From assembly GCA_947474905.1 (NCBI GenBank), contig CANJKQ010000102.1, positions 1-5,351 on the forward strand: DNA of 5,351 nt, written 5' to 3'. Shown here piece after piece: positions 1 through 5,351 of this stretch. Position 1 is the first letter of the stretch; every line of letters begins with the position of its first letter. Both the position numbers and the translations under genes were made by a program. This DNA comes from Pseudomonadota bacterium. GTDB taxonomy: Bacteria; Pseudomonadota; Alphaproteobacteria; Sphingomonadales; Sphingomonadaceae. A model generated the notes under the pieces. The model was not told where the DNA came from, made no database searches, and saw only the letters and a list, made by a program, of their open reading frames with translations.

Positions 1-323
1 AACACGACCAGCGGCGCGGCGGCATGGTCCGCAAGAAAGGCCGCACGCCGCGCGGCAACCGCCGGATGAACGATCGCCTCCAGCCGAGCGAGCGCGGCAT
101 CGTTGCCGAACACTGCCGCCCCCAGCGCCGCGCGATCAACCCCCGCTGGCCCGGTCGTACCCGGAAACGCGGCCTCTATCGCCGGCAGCAAGGCCCCGCC
201 CGGCCCCTGCAACAGGCGAACGGCAGCATCGGCATCGAACACCGGCACGCCTTCATCGGCAAACATCGCCGCAACAGTCGATTTGCCCATGCCGATCGAT
301 CCGGTGAGGCCCAGCTTGATCAT
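1..323 (-). CDS. coaE: Dephospho-CoA kinase, N-terminal half (cut by window edge)
   Basis: Dephospho-CoA kinase carries out the last step of coenzyme A synthesis, ATP-dependent phosphorylation of the ribose 3'-hydroxyl of dephospho-CoA, in the cytosol. The reading frame starts [16 protein letters not shown], with a P-loop at residues 8-15 (GSIGMGKS). It continues with VFDADAAVR (residues 28-36), which matches the family's DAD motif and its probable catalytic Asp32. A further family match is EAIVHPAV at residues 82-89. About 107 codons are present out of the usual ~195-205, so the C-terminal lid and core regions lie beyond the left edge. The start ATG (323-321) overlaps the aroE stop as ATGA, and upstream there is only a weak Shine-Dalgarno match, so translation is probably coupled to aroE. 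It is the last visible gene of the ppsR-maf-aroE-coaE operon. In related genomes dnaQ often follows, but that cannot be seen here. Confidence 0.93.
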
Positions 324-1132
324 CGCGCCAGCCTGGCACGCAGCTCATCATCGCGGTCGCGCGGCGGGGCCTGGCCGAAAAACAGTTCGAAAGCGATCGC
401 TGCCTGCCCGATCAACATCTCCAACCCATCGACAGTATCGAGATCGCGCGCGCGCGCTGCGGCCAGCAAATCCGTCTCGAGCGGGGCATAGACGATATCA
501 TAAACCACCGCGTCATCGGGCAAAGGCGCAAGGTCGAGCGTCAGAGGCGGTTGACCCACCATGCCAAGCGCGCTCGTATTAACGAGCAGGGCGACCGGCG
601 GCAGGCCCGCGTCGAGCGGCTTCACCTCACCCTTCAGCCCGAAACGCGCCAGCAACGCAGCCGCTTTCAATGGCGTGCGGTTATAGAGCGTCACCGGCCC
701 CACTCCCATTCGCGCGAGAGCGAATAGCACCGCGCGTGCCGCACCGCCTGCGCCCACCACGGCGACCGGACGATCCGCCAGGTCGAGATCGGCGATCGGC
801 GCCATGAACCCGGCGGCATCGGTATTGGTGCCGATCAAATGACCATCGGGCTGACGCAAGAGGGTGTTCATCGCGCCAATCGATCCCCGCACATCGCCCG
901 GGTCGTCGACCAGATCCATCACCGCAATCTTGTGTGGGATCGTCACGTTGCAGCCACGCCAGGCGCCATCGTCGCGACGTTGCGCGATATGGTCGGCAAG
1001 GGCGTCGGGAGGGACGTGACAAGCGCGATACTGCGCGTCGATACCCAGGGCCTCAATCCAGAATCCGTGGATCAACGGCGATTTGGAATGCGCGATGGGG
1101 TCGCCAATCACTTCGGCAAAGGGGGATGTCAT
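320..1132 (-). CDS. aroE: Shikimate dehydrogenase (NADP+)
   Basis: This enzyme reduces 3-dehydroshikimate to shikimate with NADPH in the shikimate pathway leading to chorismate and the aromatic amino acids. The 270 residues match the usual single-domain AroE length. The substrate-binding half shows [10 protein letters not shown] (residues 10-19, with the Ser16/Ser18 shikimate contacts), NVTIPHK (62-68, ending in catalytic Lys68), GAMNT (86-90) and NTDAAGF (103-109, with catalytic Asp105). The Rossmann half has the dinucleotide loop GAGGAARA (127-134) followed by NRT (151-153), where the arginine suits NADP specificity. [10 protein letters not shown] (235-244) carries the conserved Gln243. The start is the ATG that overlaps the maf stop as ATGA (1129-1132). 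An AGAGGG Shine-Dalgarno-like run lies 10 bases upstream, inside maf. All key residues are present, and nothing suggests a quinate-using paralogue. Confidence 0.97.
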
Positions 1133-1725
1133 GACGCCATTACCCTCTGGGCGCGCAGATAATCGAGGAGCGGCAGCAACGGCATGCCCATGATGGTGAA
1201 GTGGCTGCCCTCAATGCGGCTGAACAGCTGCACCCCCGGCCCTTCGACCCGATAACAGCCGACGCACCCGGCAATGGCGGGCCATTCCAGATCGAGATAC
1301 GCTTCAATGAACGCGTCCGACAATGGCCGCACGGTCATGCGGGCAAGATCGACATGGCGCCAAATCGGTTCGCCATCTCGGGCAATCACCACGGCGCTGA
1401 TCAGCAAATGAGTCGCGCCTGCCATTGCCCGCAAATGCGCCGCCGCATCGGCGCGATCGACGGGTTTGTCGAGCAGCGTGCCATCCGCCAGCGCGACGAC
1501 CGAATCGCCCCCCAACACCAGCAGGCCGGGATGGGATTGCGAGACCTTGACGGCCTTTAGCTCGGCAAGGGCATCGGCAATGTCGCGCGGCGTCGCCTTC
1601 CGGGCAAGCAAGGCCGATTTGACCGCGTTTTCATCGACATTGGCGGCAACCGCGACATGCTCGACCCCCGCCGCGCTCAGCATCGCCCGCCTCGAGGCGC
1701 TGGTTGAGGCAAGGATGAGGCTCAT
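1129..1725 (-). CDS. maf: Maf/YceF-family nucleoside triphosphate pyrophosphatase
   Basis: Maf proteins hydrolyse non-canonical or modified nucleoside triphosphates to monophosphates and pyrophosphate, cleaning the nucleotide pool. From the chosen start the protein is 198 residues. It opens MSLILASTSASRR, matching the family's LASxSxxRR phosphate-binding motif, with VDE at 30-32, LKA at 56-58, GGD with probable catalytic Asp74 at 72-74, and DKP at 86-88. The C-terminal block CYRVEGPGVQLFSRIEG (157-173) followed by MGMPLLPLL resembles the YceF branch (7-methyl-GTP preference) more than the YhdE branch (dTTP/UTP). The substrate is therefore inferred. An ATG eight codons upstream (1749) is possible but would lie inside the preceding gene. 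The ATG at 1725 gives the usual N-terminus and an ATGA overlap with the upstream stop, so I prefer it. The gene sits between the PpsR-family gene and aroE. Confidence 0.92.
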   Translation of the reverse strand: MSLILASTSASRRAMLSAAGVEHVAVAANVDENAVKSALLARKATPRDIADALAELKAVKVSQSHPGLLVLGGDSVVALADGTLLDKPVDRADAAAHLRAMAGATHLLISAVVIARDGEPIWRHVDLARMTVRPLSDAFIEAYLDLEWPAIAGCVGCYRVEGPGVQLFSRIEGSHFTIMGMPLLPLLDYLRAQRVMAS

Positions 1726-2537
1726 GCGCTGCCACGCCGTTCGTTGCACAGCGCGATGATGGCGGCGGCGGTTTCCTCGATCGATCGCCGCGTCACATCG
1801 ATCACCGGCCAGCCATTGTCGGCAAACAGGCGCCGCGCATAGGCGACTTCGCGCGTCACCGCTTCCTGGTCGACATAGGCCGTGTCAGGCGCCTGATTGA
1901 GCGACAGCAAGCGGTTGCGCCGTACCTGAACCAGTCGCTCGGCACTCGTCGTCAGCCCGACCACCAGCGGGTTTTTGAGCGTGAACAGCGACGCCGGTGG
2001 CGGTGATTCGACCACGATCGGGATGTTCGCGGTCTTATAGCCGCGATTGGCGAGGTAAATCGACGTCGGGGTCTTGGAAGAGCGCGACACGCCCGCCAGG
2101 ACGATATCGGCTTCTTCCCACTCCTCCCACGCCACCCCGTCATCATGCGCGATGGTGAACTGAATGGCCTCCACCCGCGCGAAATAGGCTGCGTCAAGCA
2201 CATGCTGGCGCCCCGGTCGCGCCTTGGCTTGCTGGCCGAGCAGCGCCGACAAAGCGCCGTTGACCGTGTCGAGCGGCGCGACAGCGGGCAGGCCAAGCAA
2301 ACGGCACTGCGCCTCAAGCGCGCGGCGCATTTCGGCATTGACGAGCGTGAACAGCACAAGACCTGGATTCTGGCCAATTTCCTGCAGAATGCGCTCAAGA
2401 TGCGCTTCGCTGCGCACCATCGGCCAGAAATGCCGGATCGTCTCGACTCCATCGAATTGGGCCAGCGCCGCCTTGGCGATGTTATCGAGCGTTTCGCCCG
2501 TTGAATCGGACAAGAGATGGACGTGGAGCCGCGTCAT
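1722..2537 (-). CDS. Kinase/pyrophosphorylase, PpsR/PDRP family (DUF299)
   Basis: Members of this family phosphorylate, using ADP, and dephosphorylate, using phosphate, a threonine of PEP synthase or pyruvate phosphate dikinase. They thereby switch that enzyme off and on in response to energy state. Whether the partner here is PpsA or PpdK cannot be told from this window, so no symbol is given. The 271-residue protein starts MTRLHVHLLSDSTGET, with the family's SDSTGET at 10-16. It has HDDG at 131-134 after YFARVEAIQF, and the diagnostic P-loop GVSRSSKT at 149-156. The P-loop is followed by PTSIYLANRGYKTANIP, which is highly conserved in the family. An in-frame ATG 20 codons upstream (2597) would add a Gly/Cys-rich leader unlike the family, so I chose the ATG at 2537. 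No clear Shine-Dalgarno precedes it. This is the first gene of the leftward operon and borders the putative origin. Confidence 0.93.
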   Translation of the reverse strand: MTRLHVHLLSDSTGETLDNIAKAALAQFDGVETIRHFWPMVRSEAHLERILQEIGQNPGLVLFTLVNAEMRRALEAQCRLLGLPAVAPLDTVNGALSALLGQQAKARPGRQHVLDAAYFARVEAIQFTIAHDDGVAWEEWEEADIVLAGVSRSSKTPTSIYLANRGYKTANIPIVVESPPPASLFTLKNPLVVGLTTSAERLVQVRRNRLLSLNQAPDTAYVDQEAVTREVAYARRLFADNGWPVIDVTRRSIEETAAAIIALCNERRGSA

Positions 2538-2548
2538 GCGCGCAAGTC

Positions 2549-2557
2549 TGTGGACAA
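2549..2557 (-). promoter_or_regulatory. DnaA-box-like site 1 (TTGTCCACA)
   Basis: Read on the minus strand this is TTGTCCACA, 8 of 9 bases of the consensus DnaA box TTATCCACA, with the CCACA core intact. It lies only about 12 bases upstream of the ppsR-type ATG, so bound DnaA could also affect expression of that gene. Binding is inferred. Confidence 0.45.
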
Positions 2558-2616
2558 CATGCCCGCAAAGGCTAGCGCAACCGCCTCCATCCGCCAAGCC
2601 GACGATTGCCGTTGAT

Positions 2617-2656
2617 AAACCGCGCGGCTATCCACACCGCTATGAACAGCCGGTTT
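2617..2656. repeat. Gapped inverted repeat around DnaA-box-like site 2
   Basis: AAACC-GCGC-GGCT (2617-2629) faces AGCCGGTTT (2648-2656). The arms pair over nine bases if the four-base GCGC is bulged out, and the 18-base loop contains most of DnaA-box-like site 2. It could be a protein-binding dyad or chance in GC-rich sequence. Confidence 0.3.
2628..2636 (+). promoter_or_regulatory. DnaA-box-like site 2 (CTATCCACA)
   Basis: On the plus strand this is CTATCCACA, matching TTATCCACA at 8 of 9 positions; only the first base differs. It is the best of the three candidate sites because the whole TATCCACA core is intact. It lies near the middle of the putative origin. Confidence 0.5.
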
Positions 2657-2670
2657 GGCGATACACAGCT

Positions 2671-2679
2671 TGTGGAAAA
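2671..2679 (-). promoter_or_regulatory. DnaA-box-like site 3 (TTTTCCACA)
   Basis: The minus strand reads TTTTCCACA, one mismatch from TTATCCACA. It is 34 bases from site 2 and in opposite orientation. A weaker match (CGATACACA, 2659-2667, plus strand) sits beside it. Confidence 0.45.
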
Positions 2680-2780
2680 TGGGGACGGCAATGGCCGACT
2701 CCGCCGCGCGCCACGGTCGCTCGCCCGTCAATCTGTGCATTGAATCGGCATCGCGAGGTTAACCCGGCAATTCGCCCGCC

Positions 2781-2820
2781 AACCAATACAACAACCTTTA
2801 TAGATTCTTATATTAGATAG
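2781..2820. promoter_or_regulatory. A+T-rich tract: candidate unwinding element and/or hemE promoter
   Basis: Thirty of these 40 bases are A or T, and 20 of the last 24 (2797-2820), in an otherwise GC-rich window. The tract lies to one side of the DnaA-box-like sites, as a duplex unwinding element would. It also ends 19 bases before the hemE ATG, so it may hold the hemE promoter: TATATT at 2809-2814 is a plausible -10, but I find no good -35 at 16-18 bases. A GANTC site (GATTC, 2803-2807) lies inside it. Confidence 0.42.
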
Positions 2821-2839
2821 CAGGGAAGACCCGACCGGC

Positions 2840-3868
2840 ATGACGACCAAAGCCTTGCTCGCGACGCTGAAAGGCGAGCGTCAGCCCCTTCCACCCTTAT
2901 GGCTGATGCGCCAGGCCGGACGCTATCTGCCCGAATATCGCGCGCTGAGAGCAGCGAAAGGCGGCTTTCTCGATCTCGTCAACGATAGCGATGCGGCCGC
3001 CGAAATCACGCTTCAGCCGCTGCGCCGCTTTGGTTTTGATGGTGCCATTCTGTTTTCGGACATTTTGATGGTGCCCTCTGCCATGGGGCAGTTCCTCACC
3101 TTTGGCGCCGGCGAAGGGCCGCAATTATCGCCCGCGCTGATCGACCATGCGCTCGATCAACTGGCGCCGGTGCCTGAGCGGCTGGATCCCGTTTACGCGA
3201 CGGTTCGCAAGGTGAAAGCCGCGCTCGATCCCGCCGTGACCTTTCTGGGTTTCGCTGGCAGTCCCTGGACGGTTGCGACCTATATGGTGGCCGGTCATGG
3301 CAGCCGCGATCAGGTCGAAACCCGCCGCTATGCCGATCGTGACCCTCAGGGATTTGCGGCGATCATCGATGCCATCATCACGCTGACCGTCGATTATCTC
3401 GCGCGCCAGATTGAGGAGGGGGTTGAAGCGGTGCAGCTGTTTGACAGCTGGGCCGGCAGCCTGTCGCCAGCTCAGTTCGAACGCTGGGTTATCGCGCCCA
3501 ATGCCGCGATCATCAGTGCGTTGAAAACGCGCCATCCCGACACGCCAATCATTGGCTTTCCCAAGGGGGCGGGCGGTAAGCTGGGCGCTTATGCCCGGGA
3601 AACCGGGGCTGATGCGATCGGCCTTGACGAAACCGTCGATCCCGCCTGGGCACATGCGACGTTGCCGGTGGGGATGCCCGTTCAGGGCAATCTCGATCCG
3701 CTGGCGCTGATTACGGGCGGCGAGGCGCTCGATACAGCGATTGATCGCGTCATTGAGGCGCTTGCCGAGCGGCCGCATGTATTCAACCTTGGGCATGGCA
3801 TCCAGCAGGACACGCCGATTGCCCATGTCGAGCAATTGGTGGCACGCGTGCGGGGAGGACGGCAATGA
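2840..3868 (+). CDS. hemE: Uroporphyrinogen decarboxylase
   Basis: HemE removes the four acetate carboxyl groups of uroporphyrinogen III to give coproporphyrinogen III, a cytosolic step of haem synthesis (and of bacteriochlorophyll synthesis in species that make it). The 342-residue protein has the expected length. It shows the signature MRQAGRYLPEYR (23-34, with substrate-binding Arg24 and Arg28), FSDILMVP (72-79, with the catalytic Asp74), GFAGSPWTVATYMV (137-150, with conserved Tyr148), DSWAGSLSP (starting at 202, with conserved Ser203), and HVFNLGHGI near the C-terminus (His319). The start ATG gives a typical N-terminus, and an AGGGAAG run ends 11 bases upstream as a rather distant ribosome site. 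hemE overlaps hemJ by ATGA, so two haem-pathway steps are translated together. Its position next to the putative oriC mirrors Caulobacter, where hemE promoters lie within the origin region. Confidence 0.98.
   Translation: MTTKALLATLKGERQPLPPLWLMRQAGRYLPEYRALRAAKGGFLDLVNDSDAAAEITLQPLRRFGFDGAILFSDILMVPSAMGQFLTFGAGEGPQLSPALIDHALDQLAPVPERLDPVYATVRKVKAALDPAVTFLGFAGSPWTVATYMVAGHGSRDQVETRRYADRDPQGFAAIIDAIITLTVDYLARQIEEGVEAVQLFDSWAGSLSPAQFERWVIAPNAAIISALKTRHPDTPIIGFPKGAGGKLGAYARETGADAIGLDETVDPAWAHATLPVGMPVQGNLDPLALITGGEALDTAIDRVIEALAERPHVFNLGHGIQQDTPIAHVEQLVARVRGGRQ
3853..3859 (+). promoter_or_regulatory. Strong Shine-Dalgarno for hemJ inside the hemE 3' end
   Basis: GGGAGGA ends five bases before the hemJ ATG at 3865 and lies in the last codons of hemE. 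It is the best ribosome site in the window and fixes the hemJ start despite the overlap. Confidence 0.75.
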
Positions 3869-4320
3869 CCGGCTGGCTCGGCAACGCCTATCCCTGGGTG
3901 AAGGCAGCGCATGTCATCTTTGTCATCTTCTGGATGGCGGGGTTATTTATGCTGCCGCGCTTTCTGGTTTATCATCAGGAAGCCGAACCAGGCTCGGCGG
4001 AAGCTGCGCGATGGGTTGAGCGTGAGCAAAAGCTGCGCGCGATCATCCTGACGCCGTCCCTGGTCATCGTCTGGCTGCTGGGATTGAGCCTGGCGGCCAA
4101 TCTGGGCGGGTTTTCGGGCGTGCCGGGGCTGGGCTGGCTCCATGCCAAAATCGCGCTGGTGGTGCTGTTGAGCGGCTATCATGGCTATATTGTCGCTTAT
4201 TCGCGGCGGCTGGCGCGTGGCGAACAGCGGTTGAGCGGCAAGCAGCTACGGTTGCTCAACGAAGTGCCGGGAATAATGGCGGTGCTGATCGTGGTGCTGG
4301 TGATCGCCCAGCCGTTTTGA
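3865..4320 (+). CDS. hemJ: Protoporphyrinogen IX oxidase HemJ (membrane protein)
   Basis: HemJ oxidises protoporphyrinogen IX to protoporphyrin IX, the penultimate step of protohaem synthesis, in the inner membrane. It is the usual form of this enzyme in alphaproteobacteria that lack HemG and HemY. The 151-residue protein has the family signature KAAHVIFVIFWMAGLFMLPR (13-32), with the conserved His16 and Arg32, then YHQE at 36-39. Further matches are WLHAK (91-95), SGYHGY (103-108) and NEVPGI (132-137). Four hydrophobic segments at roughly 14-36, 60-80, 92-112 and 136-150 fit the four-helix topology. No cleavable signal peptide is apparent. The start is set by the ATGA overlap with hemE and the GGGAGGA ribosome site. 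Pairing with hemE supports a haem role rather than the older CopD-like/UPF0093 label. The gene is complete. Confidence 0.93.
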   Translation: MTGWLGNAYPWVKAAHVIFVIFWMAGLFMLPRFLVYHQEAEPGSAEAARWVEREQKLRAIILTPSLVIVWLLGLSLAANLGGFSGVPGLGWLHAKIALVVLLSGYHGYIVAYSRRLARGEQRLSGKQLRLLNEVPGIMAVLIVVLVIAQPF

Positions 4321-4583: not shown

Positions 4584-5351
4584 ATGCATCTTGCCGACCT
4601 TAAGAAAAAGACTCCCGCCGATCTGGTTGAAATGGCCGAACAATTGGGAGTCGAAGGCGCGTCGACCATGCGCAAGCAGGATTTGATGTTCGCCATCCTC
4701 AAGGTCGAAGCCGATAATGGCGAGCAGATCATGGGGCTTGGCACGATCGAAGTCTTGCCTGATGGCTTTGGTTTTCTCCGCTCGCCCGAAGCCAATTACC
4801 TCGCGGGGCCCGACGATATTTATGTCTCACCGAACCAGGTCCGCAAATTCGGGCTGCGCACGGGCGACACGGTTGAGGGCGAAATCCGCGGACCGAAGGA
4901 AGGCGAGCGCTATTTTGCGCTGACCCGCCTGACCAGCGTCAATTTCGACAATCCCGATGCGCTGCGCCACCGCGTCAATTTCGACAATCTGACGCCGCTC
5001 TATCCCGAAGAAAAGCTGACTTTCGACCAGCTCGACCCCACGCAAAAAGACAAGAGCGCGCGGGTGATCGACATTGTGTCGCCGCAGGGCAAGGGCCAGC
5101 GCACGCTGATTGTCGCGCCGCCGCGTGTCGGCAAGACGGTGATGCTGCAAAACATCGCCAAGGCGATTACCGACAATCACCCCGAAGTTTTCCTGATCGT
5201 GCTGCTGATTGACGAGCGGCCCGAGGAAGTGACCGACATGCAGCGTAGCGTGAAGGGCGAGGTGGTGAGCTCCACCTTTGACGAACCCGCCAGCCGCCAC
5301 GTCCAGGTCGCTGAAATGGTGATCGAAAAGGCCAAGCGCCTGGTCGAGCAC
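4584..5351 (+). CDS. rho: Transcription termination factor Rho, N-terminal part (cut by window edge)
   Basis: Rho is the hexameric RNA-dependent ATPase/helicase that binds C-rich nascent RNA and ends transcription. From [20 protein letters not shown] the frame is open to the window edge, giving 256 codons of about 420. Residues 1-45 form the helical Rho N-terminal domain. Next comes the cold-shock-like RNA-binding domain, with DGFGFLR (60-66) and [19 protein letters not shown] (77-95). The linker has VNFDN at 119-123 and NLTPLYP at 135-141. The ATPase core shows the Walker A motif APPRVGKT (178-185, Lys184), and [13 protein letters not shown] (207-219) with the probable catalytic Glu211, then VVSSTFDEP. 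There is no long charged insertion between the N-terminal and RNA-binding domains, so this is the compact form. The second half of the ATPase domain (Q- and R-loops) is beyond the edge. The gene probably has its own promoter downstream of hemJ. Confidence 0.97.

What the first reader, a model, noticed from the sequence alone, without database searches (positions are those of the whole stretch)
2538..2839. Likely chromosomal replication origin between the DUF299 operon and hemE
Three near-consensus DnaA boxes, a GANTC cluster and an A+T-rich tract lie in the single divergent gap of the window. The flanking genes are those at the Caulobacter and Rickettsia origins (hemE on one side, DUF299-maf-aroE-coaE on the other). 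The motifs are seen directly; the synteny rule is established for those alphaproteobacteria; its application to this organism is inference.
Basis: partly seen in the sequence, partly recalled or inferred. Interest (0 to 1): 0.75.

Follow-up and report, generated by a model that had tools for sequence, protein, structure and literature searches.

The report
Bacterial chromosome replication start site
This gap between two genes is almost certainly where a sphingomonad-like bacterium starts copying its chromosome, at a place already predicted for its relatives, so it is real but ordinary.

Summary
The gap 2538-2839 lies between a divergent DUF299/COG1806 gene and hemE. It carries three DnaA boxes one mismatch from TTATCCACA (0.04 expected), three GANTC sites and the most A+T-rich 36 bases of the window. 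The window's own genome is not held, so whole-replicon tests used relatives. Of 106 distinct gaps, the window's among them, 99 keep at least one such box (6.9 expected), and ordered blocks are conserved. Cumulative skew is lowest at this gap in local scans of two relatives and about 75 kb away in a third. The nearest parS lies 4-25 kb from hemE in 23 of 23 fully listed genomes; dnaA is at least 199 kb away in 31 of 31. In two relatives hemE has moved to a hemC-hemF-hemE row, yet gap, parS and parAB stay beside DUF299, so the gap is not merely hemE's promoter. A hemE-side oriC (PMC4741004) and GANTC enrichment around ori in Sphingomonadales (PMC9836097) are both in print: a new member of a known kind. 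For the window itself the case rests on sequence and synteny.

The parts
2538..2839 (.). Predicted oriC: divergent gap between DUF299/COG1806 gene and hemE
2549..2557 (-). DnaA box TTGTCCACA (1 mismatch to TTATCCACA); best conserved box, mean column identity 0.94 over 31 chosen relatives
2628..2636 (+). DnaA box CTATCCACA (1 mismatch), mean column identity 0.77
2671..2679 (-). DnaA box TTTTCCACA (1 mismatch), right arm of an inverted box pair, mean column identity 0.82
2659..2667 (+). Degenerate left arm of the inverted pair, CGATACACA (2 mismatches to TTATNCACA); consensus of the 31 relatives across both arms reads TTTATCCACAGCCTGTGGATAA
2697..2701 (.). GANTC (CcrM-type) site, in the conserved block CGANTC 2696-2701, mean column identity 0.92
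2742..2746 (.). GANTC site
2803..2807 (.). GANTC site inside the A+T-rich tract
2727..2741 (+). Conserved block (relatives GTCAA-N-CTGTTGGCA, identity 0.91; window diverged to GTCAATCTGTGCATT); possible IHF-type site in relatives, degenerate in the window
   Evidence: the IHF reading is inference
2758..2767 (+). Conserved block around TTAACCCGG (relatives TAA-N-CCCCG), identity 0.86
2569..2581 (+). Conserved block around GGCTAGCGCAACC, identity 0.74; role not known (could belong to the DUF299 promoter)
2784..2820 (.). Most A+T-rich tract of the window; candidate duplex-unwinding element (may overlap the hemE promoter)
   Evidence: role is inference
1722..2537 (-). DUF299/COG1806 kinase-pyrophosphorylase gene (PF03618)
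1129..1749 (-). maf-like gene (PF02545)
320..1132 (-). aroE, shikimate dehydrogenase
3..323 (-). coaE, dephospho-CoA kinase, cut by the window edge
2840..3868 (+). hemE, uroporphyrinogen decarboxylase
3865..4320 (+). UPF0093 (hemJ-like) gene
4584..5351 (+). rho, cut by the window edge

Best explanation
The gap is the chromosomal replication origin (oriC) of a Sphingomonas-like alphaproteobacterium, of the hemE-COG1806 type. DnaA-ATP binds the box next to DUF299 and the box and inverted pair in the middle of the gap. The assembly opens the A+T-rich tract beside hemE, and two forks leave in opposite directions, one through hemE-rho (towards parAB/parS in relatives), the other through DUF299-maf-aroE-coaE. 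Shown in the window: place, flanking genes, boxes, A+T tract. Shown in relatives only: strand asymmetry, parS nearby, dnaA far away. Inferred: DnaA binding, unwinding at that tract, and any role for GANTC methylation or IHF.
For: Box cluster far above chance. In 79 gaps (78 relatives and the window) 6.97 boxes/kb against 0.12/kb in the rest of the same loci. In 106 distinct gaps, 254 box sites against 7.0 expected, 99 of 106 with at least one. Box columns are 0.82 conserved against 0.63 in the rest of the gap over 31 chosen relatives. In G103 a GGGNAGGG strand-bias motif reads 95:11 on one half of the circle from hemE and 10:107 on the other; splitting at hemE is not beaten by any of 177 rotations for GC skew, TA skew or that motif. 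Summing the sparse samples by hand, the same motif reads 22:2 and 5:36 in G001 and 19:6 and 4:12 in G121 on the two sides of hemE. Cumulative G-C is lowest at the end of the 10-kb bin of the gap in G001 (230-kb scan) and G121 (290-kb scan). Nearest parS within 25 kb of hemE in 23 of 23 fully listed genomes; dnaA at least 199 kb off in 31 of 31. In two relatives hemE has left and gap, parS and parAB stay by DUF299. Published placement: PMC4741004, PMC4059872 (passages).
Against: The window's own genome is not held: no skew, parS or dnaA test on it. Seven of 106 gaps have no box within one mismatch, including L134, from the relative whose DUF299 is 87% identical to the window's. In G103 a free two-breakpoint fit puts the switch at 1.90-1.94 Mb, 50-90 kb from the gap, and the fine cumulative skew is lowest about 75 kb away, beside 5 kb that reads N, with only a local minimum at the gap. 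In G121 the low point at the gap (-1068) is barely below that 20 kb earlier (-1044). GC skew in the 20 sparse samples of G001 is noisy. None of the three boxes in the window is the exact consensus, and the whole-window count of TTWTNCACA at one mismatch is not significant. In 7 of the 12 genomes scanned for exact TTATCCACA none lies in the gap; in G002 one lies about 0.8 kb from the dnaA domain match.
Confidence: 0.93

Rival explanations
1. The gap is only a divergent promoter region in which DnaA acts as a transcription factor for hemE and DUF299; the true origin is elsewhere, for example next to dnaA.
For: The A+T-rich tract lies directly upstream of hemE and may hold its promoter; DnaA is known to regulate promoters (recalled); one exact box lies near dnaA in G002.
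Against: The gap stays with DUF299, parS and parAB in two relatives whose hemE has moved, though UPF0093 now follows it and could use the same tract; strand asymmetry switches at or near here in three relatives; dnaA is at least 199 kb away in 31 of 31 genomes.
Confidence: 0.04
2. It was the ancestral origin, but this lineage has shifted initiation elsewhere and keeps the boxes as a relic or as a DnaA-titrating cluster.
For: Boxes in the window are off-consensus, and a close relative by DUF299 (L134) has none within one mismatch.
Against: The most conserved box (one mismatch) and the CGANTC block are present in the window. No second site is indicated, but the window's genome could not be searched.
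Confidence: 0.03
3. Chance motifs in a conserved housekeeping neighbourhood.
For: GANTC count in the window is only weakly above chance.
Against: Three boxes against 0.04 expected and conserved positions in relatives.
Confidence: 0.005

Closest known systems
Caulobacter crescentus Cori
   Same: Between hemE and COG1806/DUF299; several DnaA boxes, A+T-rich region, several GANTC sites (PMC1914354 and PMC3973325, passages).
   Different: Cori has five CtrA sites and one IHF site. The window has no TTAA-N7-TTAA within one mismatch (one at two mismatches), and CtrA sites are not enriched in the family.
Sphingopyxis granuli TFA and other Sphingomonadaceae oriC (Ori-Finder/DoriC)
   Same: Same hemE-side region with conserved DnaA boxes and a putative DUE (PMC4741004, passages); Novosphingobium PP1Y also near hemE with three boxes (PMC4059872, passages).
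   Different: No difference of kind found. The TFA sequence itself was not aligned; Sphingopyxis sp. HIX (L018) is among the gaps compared. The window's boxes are each one mismatch off the consensus.
Rickettsia prowazekii and Wolbachia origins
   Same: hemE as boundary gene; COG1806 on the other side in Rickettsia (PMC1914354, passages).
   Different: Wolbachia has COG1253 in place of COG1806. The opposite case, loss of hemE from the site, is seen in two sphingomonad relatives here.

Membership tests
hemE-COG1806 type alphaproteobacterial oriC | Gap bounded by hemE and the COG1806/DUF299 gene | tested here: met
   Pfam PF01208 and PF03618
hemE-COG1806 type alphaproteobacterial oriC | Cluster of DnaA boxes above chance | tested here: met
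   3 against 0.04 expected; 254 against 7.0 in 106 gaps
hemE-COG1806 type alphaproteobacterial oriC | A+T-rich region | tested here: met
   Most A+T-rich 36-mer of the window
hemE-COG1806 type alphaproteobacterial oriC | Strand-asymmetry switch of the replicon at the gap | tested here: inconclusive
   Window's genome not held; at the gap in G001 and G121 (local scans), about 75 kb off in G103
hemE-COG1806 type alphaproteobacterial oriC | parS/parAB close by | tested here: inconclusive
   Beyond the 5.3-kb window; nearest parS within 25 kb of hemE in 23 of 23 fully listed relatives
hemE-COG1806 type alphaproteobacterial oriC | Replication actually starts here and DnaA binds the boxes | not testable with these tools
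   Needs marker frequency and footprinting
CtrA-silenced origin (Caulobacter Cori subtype) | CtrA sites TTAA-N7-TTAA (recalled consensus) in the gap | tested here: not met
   None within one mismatch in the window; 9 of 106 gaps against 7.0 by chance
Origin with IHF site | IHF consensus WATCAANNNNTTR (recalled) | tested here: inconclusive
   53 of 106 gaps within one mismatch against 16.8 by chance, none exact; window only at two mismatches
dnaA-linked oriC | dnaA next to the origin | tested here: not met
   Not in the window; at least 199 kb from hemE in 31 of 31 relatives

The most novel reading that the evidence does not exclude
Sphingomonad origins are timed by CcrM methylation rather than silenced by CtrA: GANTC sites, one of them (CGANTC) a nearly fixed part of the box architecture, let hemimethylation after fork passage delay re-initiation, an analogue of GATC/SeqA in E. 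coli. That GANTC rises around ori in Sphingomonadales is already in print (PMC9836097); the fixed site inside the box array and the origin-timing role would be the new part.
Probability: 0.2. Interest if true: 0.55.

Novelty: new member of a known kind. Interest (0 to 1): 0.26.

Why it matters
It fixes the likely origin of an unplaced sphingomonad-like sequence and adds comparative support (parS, strand bias, gap retained after hemE left) to a placement that in the papers read rests on Ori-Finder predictions. PMC9836097 (passages) kept only 17 of 114 closed Sphingomonadales genomes as having one unambiguous ori, so a rule from DUF299, parS and box architecture could help. Contig 1 of six relatives begins within 0.6 kb of the dnaA domain although the evidence puts the origin at hemE, which matters to anyone reading replication direction or gene dosage from such coordinates.

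Tried and rejected
Sparse GC skew of G001, 20 samples: too noisy to place the origin by itself; the GGGNAGGG motif in the same samples switches between the 3.03-Mb and 3.10-Mb samples. The exact TTATCCACA genome scan is not a uniform origin finder: in the hemE gap lie 3 of 5 hits of G001, 3 of 12 of G116, 2 of 43 of G103, 1 of 5 of G137 and 1 of 15 of G110, and none in G070, G121, G073, G056, G002, G016 and G135; G103 has another triple at 2322615-2322760 (gap places). CtrA sites as part of the origin: not supported for this family.

GANTC as proof of the origin: rejected. In G001 three intergenic segments besides the gap itself, of 184, hold at least as many sites as the gap, and in G121 14 of 97 (the gap may be one of them); only in G103 does the gap stand alone of 264. 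GANTC is over-represented in intergenic DNA generally (PMC3973325, passages), and its rise around ori in four orders, Sphingomonadales included, is published (PMC9836097, one section read whole). I found that paper's section only when checking this report; it lowered the probability and interest of my novel reading a little. My gene caller is crude. Expected values come from first-order Markov sequences and take no account of shared ancestry. The 106 gaps are distinct strings, not independent samples, and include the window. Of 80 loci, L001 and L024 gave no gap. Of 33 loci, six were left out as repeats of first-set genomes and two (L081, L086) for lack of synteny; two gaps were added from L134 and L138. 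The 31 aligned relatives are a choice of mine from 105, not a random draw.

parS: one search listed 18 of 26 genomes fully, G037 in part and 7 not at all; only the 18 and 5 of the 7 are counted (the other two have displaced hemE and are told apart). G133 has 8 of its 17 parS-like sites more than 50 kb away. dnaA distances use rounded genome sizes for 21 of 31 genomes; G004 and G027 are not counted there.

Full report
What is there. The 302-base gap 2538-2839 separates a DUF299/COG1806 gene (PF03618, - strand) followed by maf, aroE and coaE from hemE (PF01208, + strand) followed by a UPF0093 gene and rho. It holds three sites one mismatch from TTATCCACA at 2549-2557(-), 2628-2636(+) and 2671-2679(-), where 0.04 are expected and none of 3000 Markov sequences reached three. 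GANTC sites lie at 2697, 2742 and 2803, a modest excess by themselves (p 0.04). The most A+T-rich 36-mers of the window begin at 2784 and 2785.

Relatives by sequence. hemE was used to fetch 80 loci (the best 80 of 588 confirmed) from named genomes; 78 of them plus the window gave a usable gap. Box density is 6.97 per kb in the gaps against 0.12 per kb in the rest of these loci; 58 of 79 gaps have two or more boxes and 5 have none. A wider set of 106 distinct gaps, the window's included, has 254 box sites against 7.0 expected, 99 of 106 gaps with at least one; the seven without are L032, L035, L050, L061, L063, L105 and L134. An alignment of the window with 31 chosen relatives shows an ordered set of blocks: the box next to DUF299 (mean column identity 0.94), a GCTAGCG block (0.74), the middle box (0.77), an inverted box pair whose left arm is degenerate in the window (0.77 and 0.82), an almost fixed CGANTC (0.92), a GTCAA-N-CTGTTGGCA block (0.91, diverged in the window), a TAA-N-CCCCG block (0.86), and the A+T-rich tract with a GANTC in it (0.67). 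Box columns average 0.82 identity, the remaining columns 0.63.

Relatives by whole-chromosome features. In G103, one contig of 3.53 Mb, 60 stretches of 20 kb show that GGGNAGGG points one way on one half of the chromosome and the other way on the other half (95:11 and 10:107); no rotation of 177 beats the split at hemE for GC skew, TA skew or this motif, although a free two-breakpoint fit prefers 1.90-1.94 Mb to hemE at 1.85 Mb. Reading 196 kb through that region gives a local skew minimum at the hemE gap, but the lowest point is about 75 kb further on, beside a stretch of 5 kb that reads N. In G001 (Sphingomonas phyllosphaerae FA2, L015) and G121 the lowest cumulative value of a 230-kb and a 290-kb scan stands at the end of the 10-kb bin that holds the gap, in G121 by a small margin. 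In the sparse samples, summed by hand, the motif reads 22:2 and 5:36 on the two sides of hemE in G001, and 19:6 and 4:12 in G121. The nearest parS-like site is 4.1-24.3 kb from hemE in 23 of 23 genomes whose listing was complete, 76 of 84 sites lying within 50 kb. dnaA is 199 kb to 2.0 Mb from hemE in 31 of 31 genomes. PMC8116508 (passages) reports that dnaA is not conserved near ori in Sphingomonadales and that parAB might be a good anchor for ori.

A natural experiment. In G004 (the genome of L001, a Sphingomonas MAG) and in G027, hemE is not beside DUF299. In both it ends a hemC-hemF-hemE row (G027 by Pfam; G004 by tblastn with the G027 proteins). The gap is kept between UPF0093 and DUF299 in both. 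Two parS sites lie 6-8 kb (G027) and 9-11 kb (G004) from DUF299, with parA, parB and mnmG on the same stretch. The G027 gap keeps an exact TTATCCACA and a TTTTCCACA; the G004 gap has no box within one mismatch but one exact match to TTWTNCACA. The shared arrangement suggests one event, so this counts as one case rather than two. The gap stays where an origin would and hemE's own promoter would not, although UPF0093 may now use the A+T-rich tract.

Mechanism. Shown: the place, the ordered sites and their conservation, and in relatives the strand switch and parS. Inferred from established knowledge of DnaA origins: DnaA fills the boxes and melts the A+T-rich tract next to hemE. CtrA control is not supported: no site within one mismatch in the window, and 9 of 106 gaps against 7.0 by chance. 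This fits the report that ctrA loss has no negative effect on growth in Sphingomonas melonis (PMC8116508, passages). An IHF-type site is plausible in the family (53 of 106 gaps within one mismatch against 16.8) but only two-mismatch matches exist in the window.

GANTC. Across 106 gaps there are 513 GANTC against 158 expected, 14.5 per kb against 2.0 per kb in the flanks, and 13.3 per kb against 3.4 per kb in the UPF0093-rho gap of the same 66 loci. In G103 the hemE gap holds 11, the densest of 264 intergenic segments of the sampled part. In G001 three other segments of 184, and in G121 14 of 97, hold at least as many as the gap. A RAMA-domain protein is found in 7 of 7 genomes searched and, of 14 control genomes, only in Caulobacter (that RAMA marks CcrM is recalled). 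Several GANTC sites in the Caulobacter origin are mentioned in PMC3973325 (passages). PMC9836097 (section 19 read whole) already reports a strong increase of GANTC around ori in four orders, Sphingomonadales among them. What I have not seen in print is a fixed CGANTC inside the box array; two searches bear on this, and of the papers they listed I saw passages of PMC8116508, PMC3973325, PMC11514494, PMC2877005 and PMC9836097 only.

Known or new. PMC4741004 (passages) states that oriC was located close to hemE in Sphingopyxis granuli, as predicted for most Sphingomonadaceae in DoriC, with conserved DnaA boxes and a putative DUE. PMC4059872 (passages) reports a putative origin close to hemE in Novosphingobium PP1Y; it also calls that site close to a DNA-A gene, which differs from the dnaA distances found here in other genomes. 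PMC1914354 (passages) gives the Caulobacter and Rickettsia boundary genes. The 2001 paper that those cite for the rule is not held. No experimental mapping of a sphingomonad origin turned up: a search for oriC, Sphingomonas and marker frequency together found no paper. The finding is a new member of a known kind.

Noticed in passing
G027: L241 (origin locus) and L242:5681-8405; G004: L134, L243 (origin locus) and L244:4497-7231: hemE has left the origin locus in two relatives of the window and ends a hemC-hemF-hemE row, while the gap, parS, parAB and DUF299 stay.
   Followed up: partly
106 gaps upstream of hemE; window 2697, 2742, 2803: GANTC is about threefold above Markov expectation in the origin gaps of the family, with one nearly fixed CGANTC; the rise around ori at larger scale is published (PMC9836097).
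   Followed up: partly
L035, L051, L063, L076: In four loci no DUF299 was found beside hemE and maf abuts the gap; two of the four (L035, L063) have no box within one mismatch, so origin architecture may differ there.
   Followed up: no
L240:4615-4760 (G103:C1:2322615-2322760): Three exact TTATCCACA sites in 146 bases far from the origin, beside a two-domain ABC ATPase ORF (PF00005, PF12848); possibly a DnaA-titration or regulatory site.
   Followed up: partly
G070, G122, G056, G089, G060, G116: Contig 1 of these genomes begins within 0.6 kb of the dnaA domain match, so coordinate 1 is probably not the origin.
   Followed up: no
L030 and L023: Records titled Bacillus sp. 2B10 and Microvirga sp. 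SRT01 carry sphingomonad-like hemE loci and may be mislabelled.
   Followed up: no
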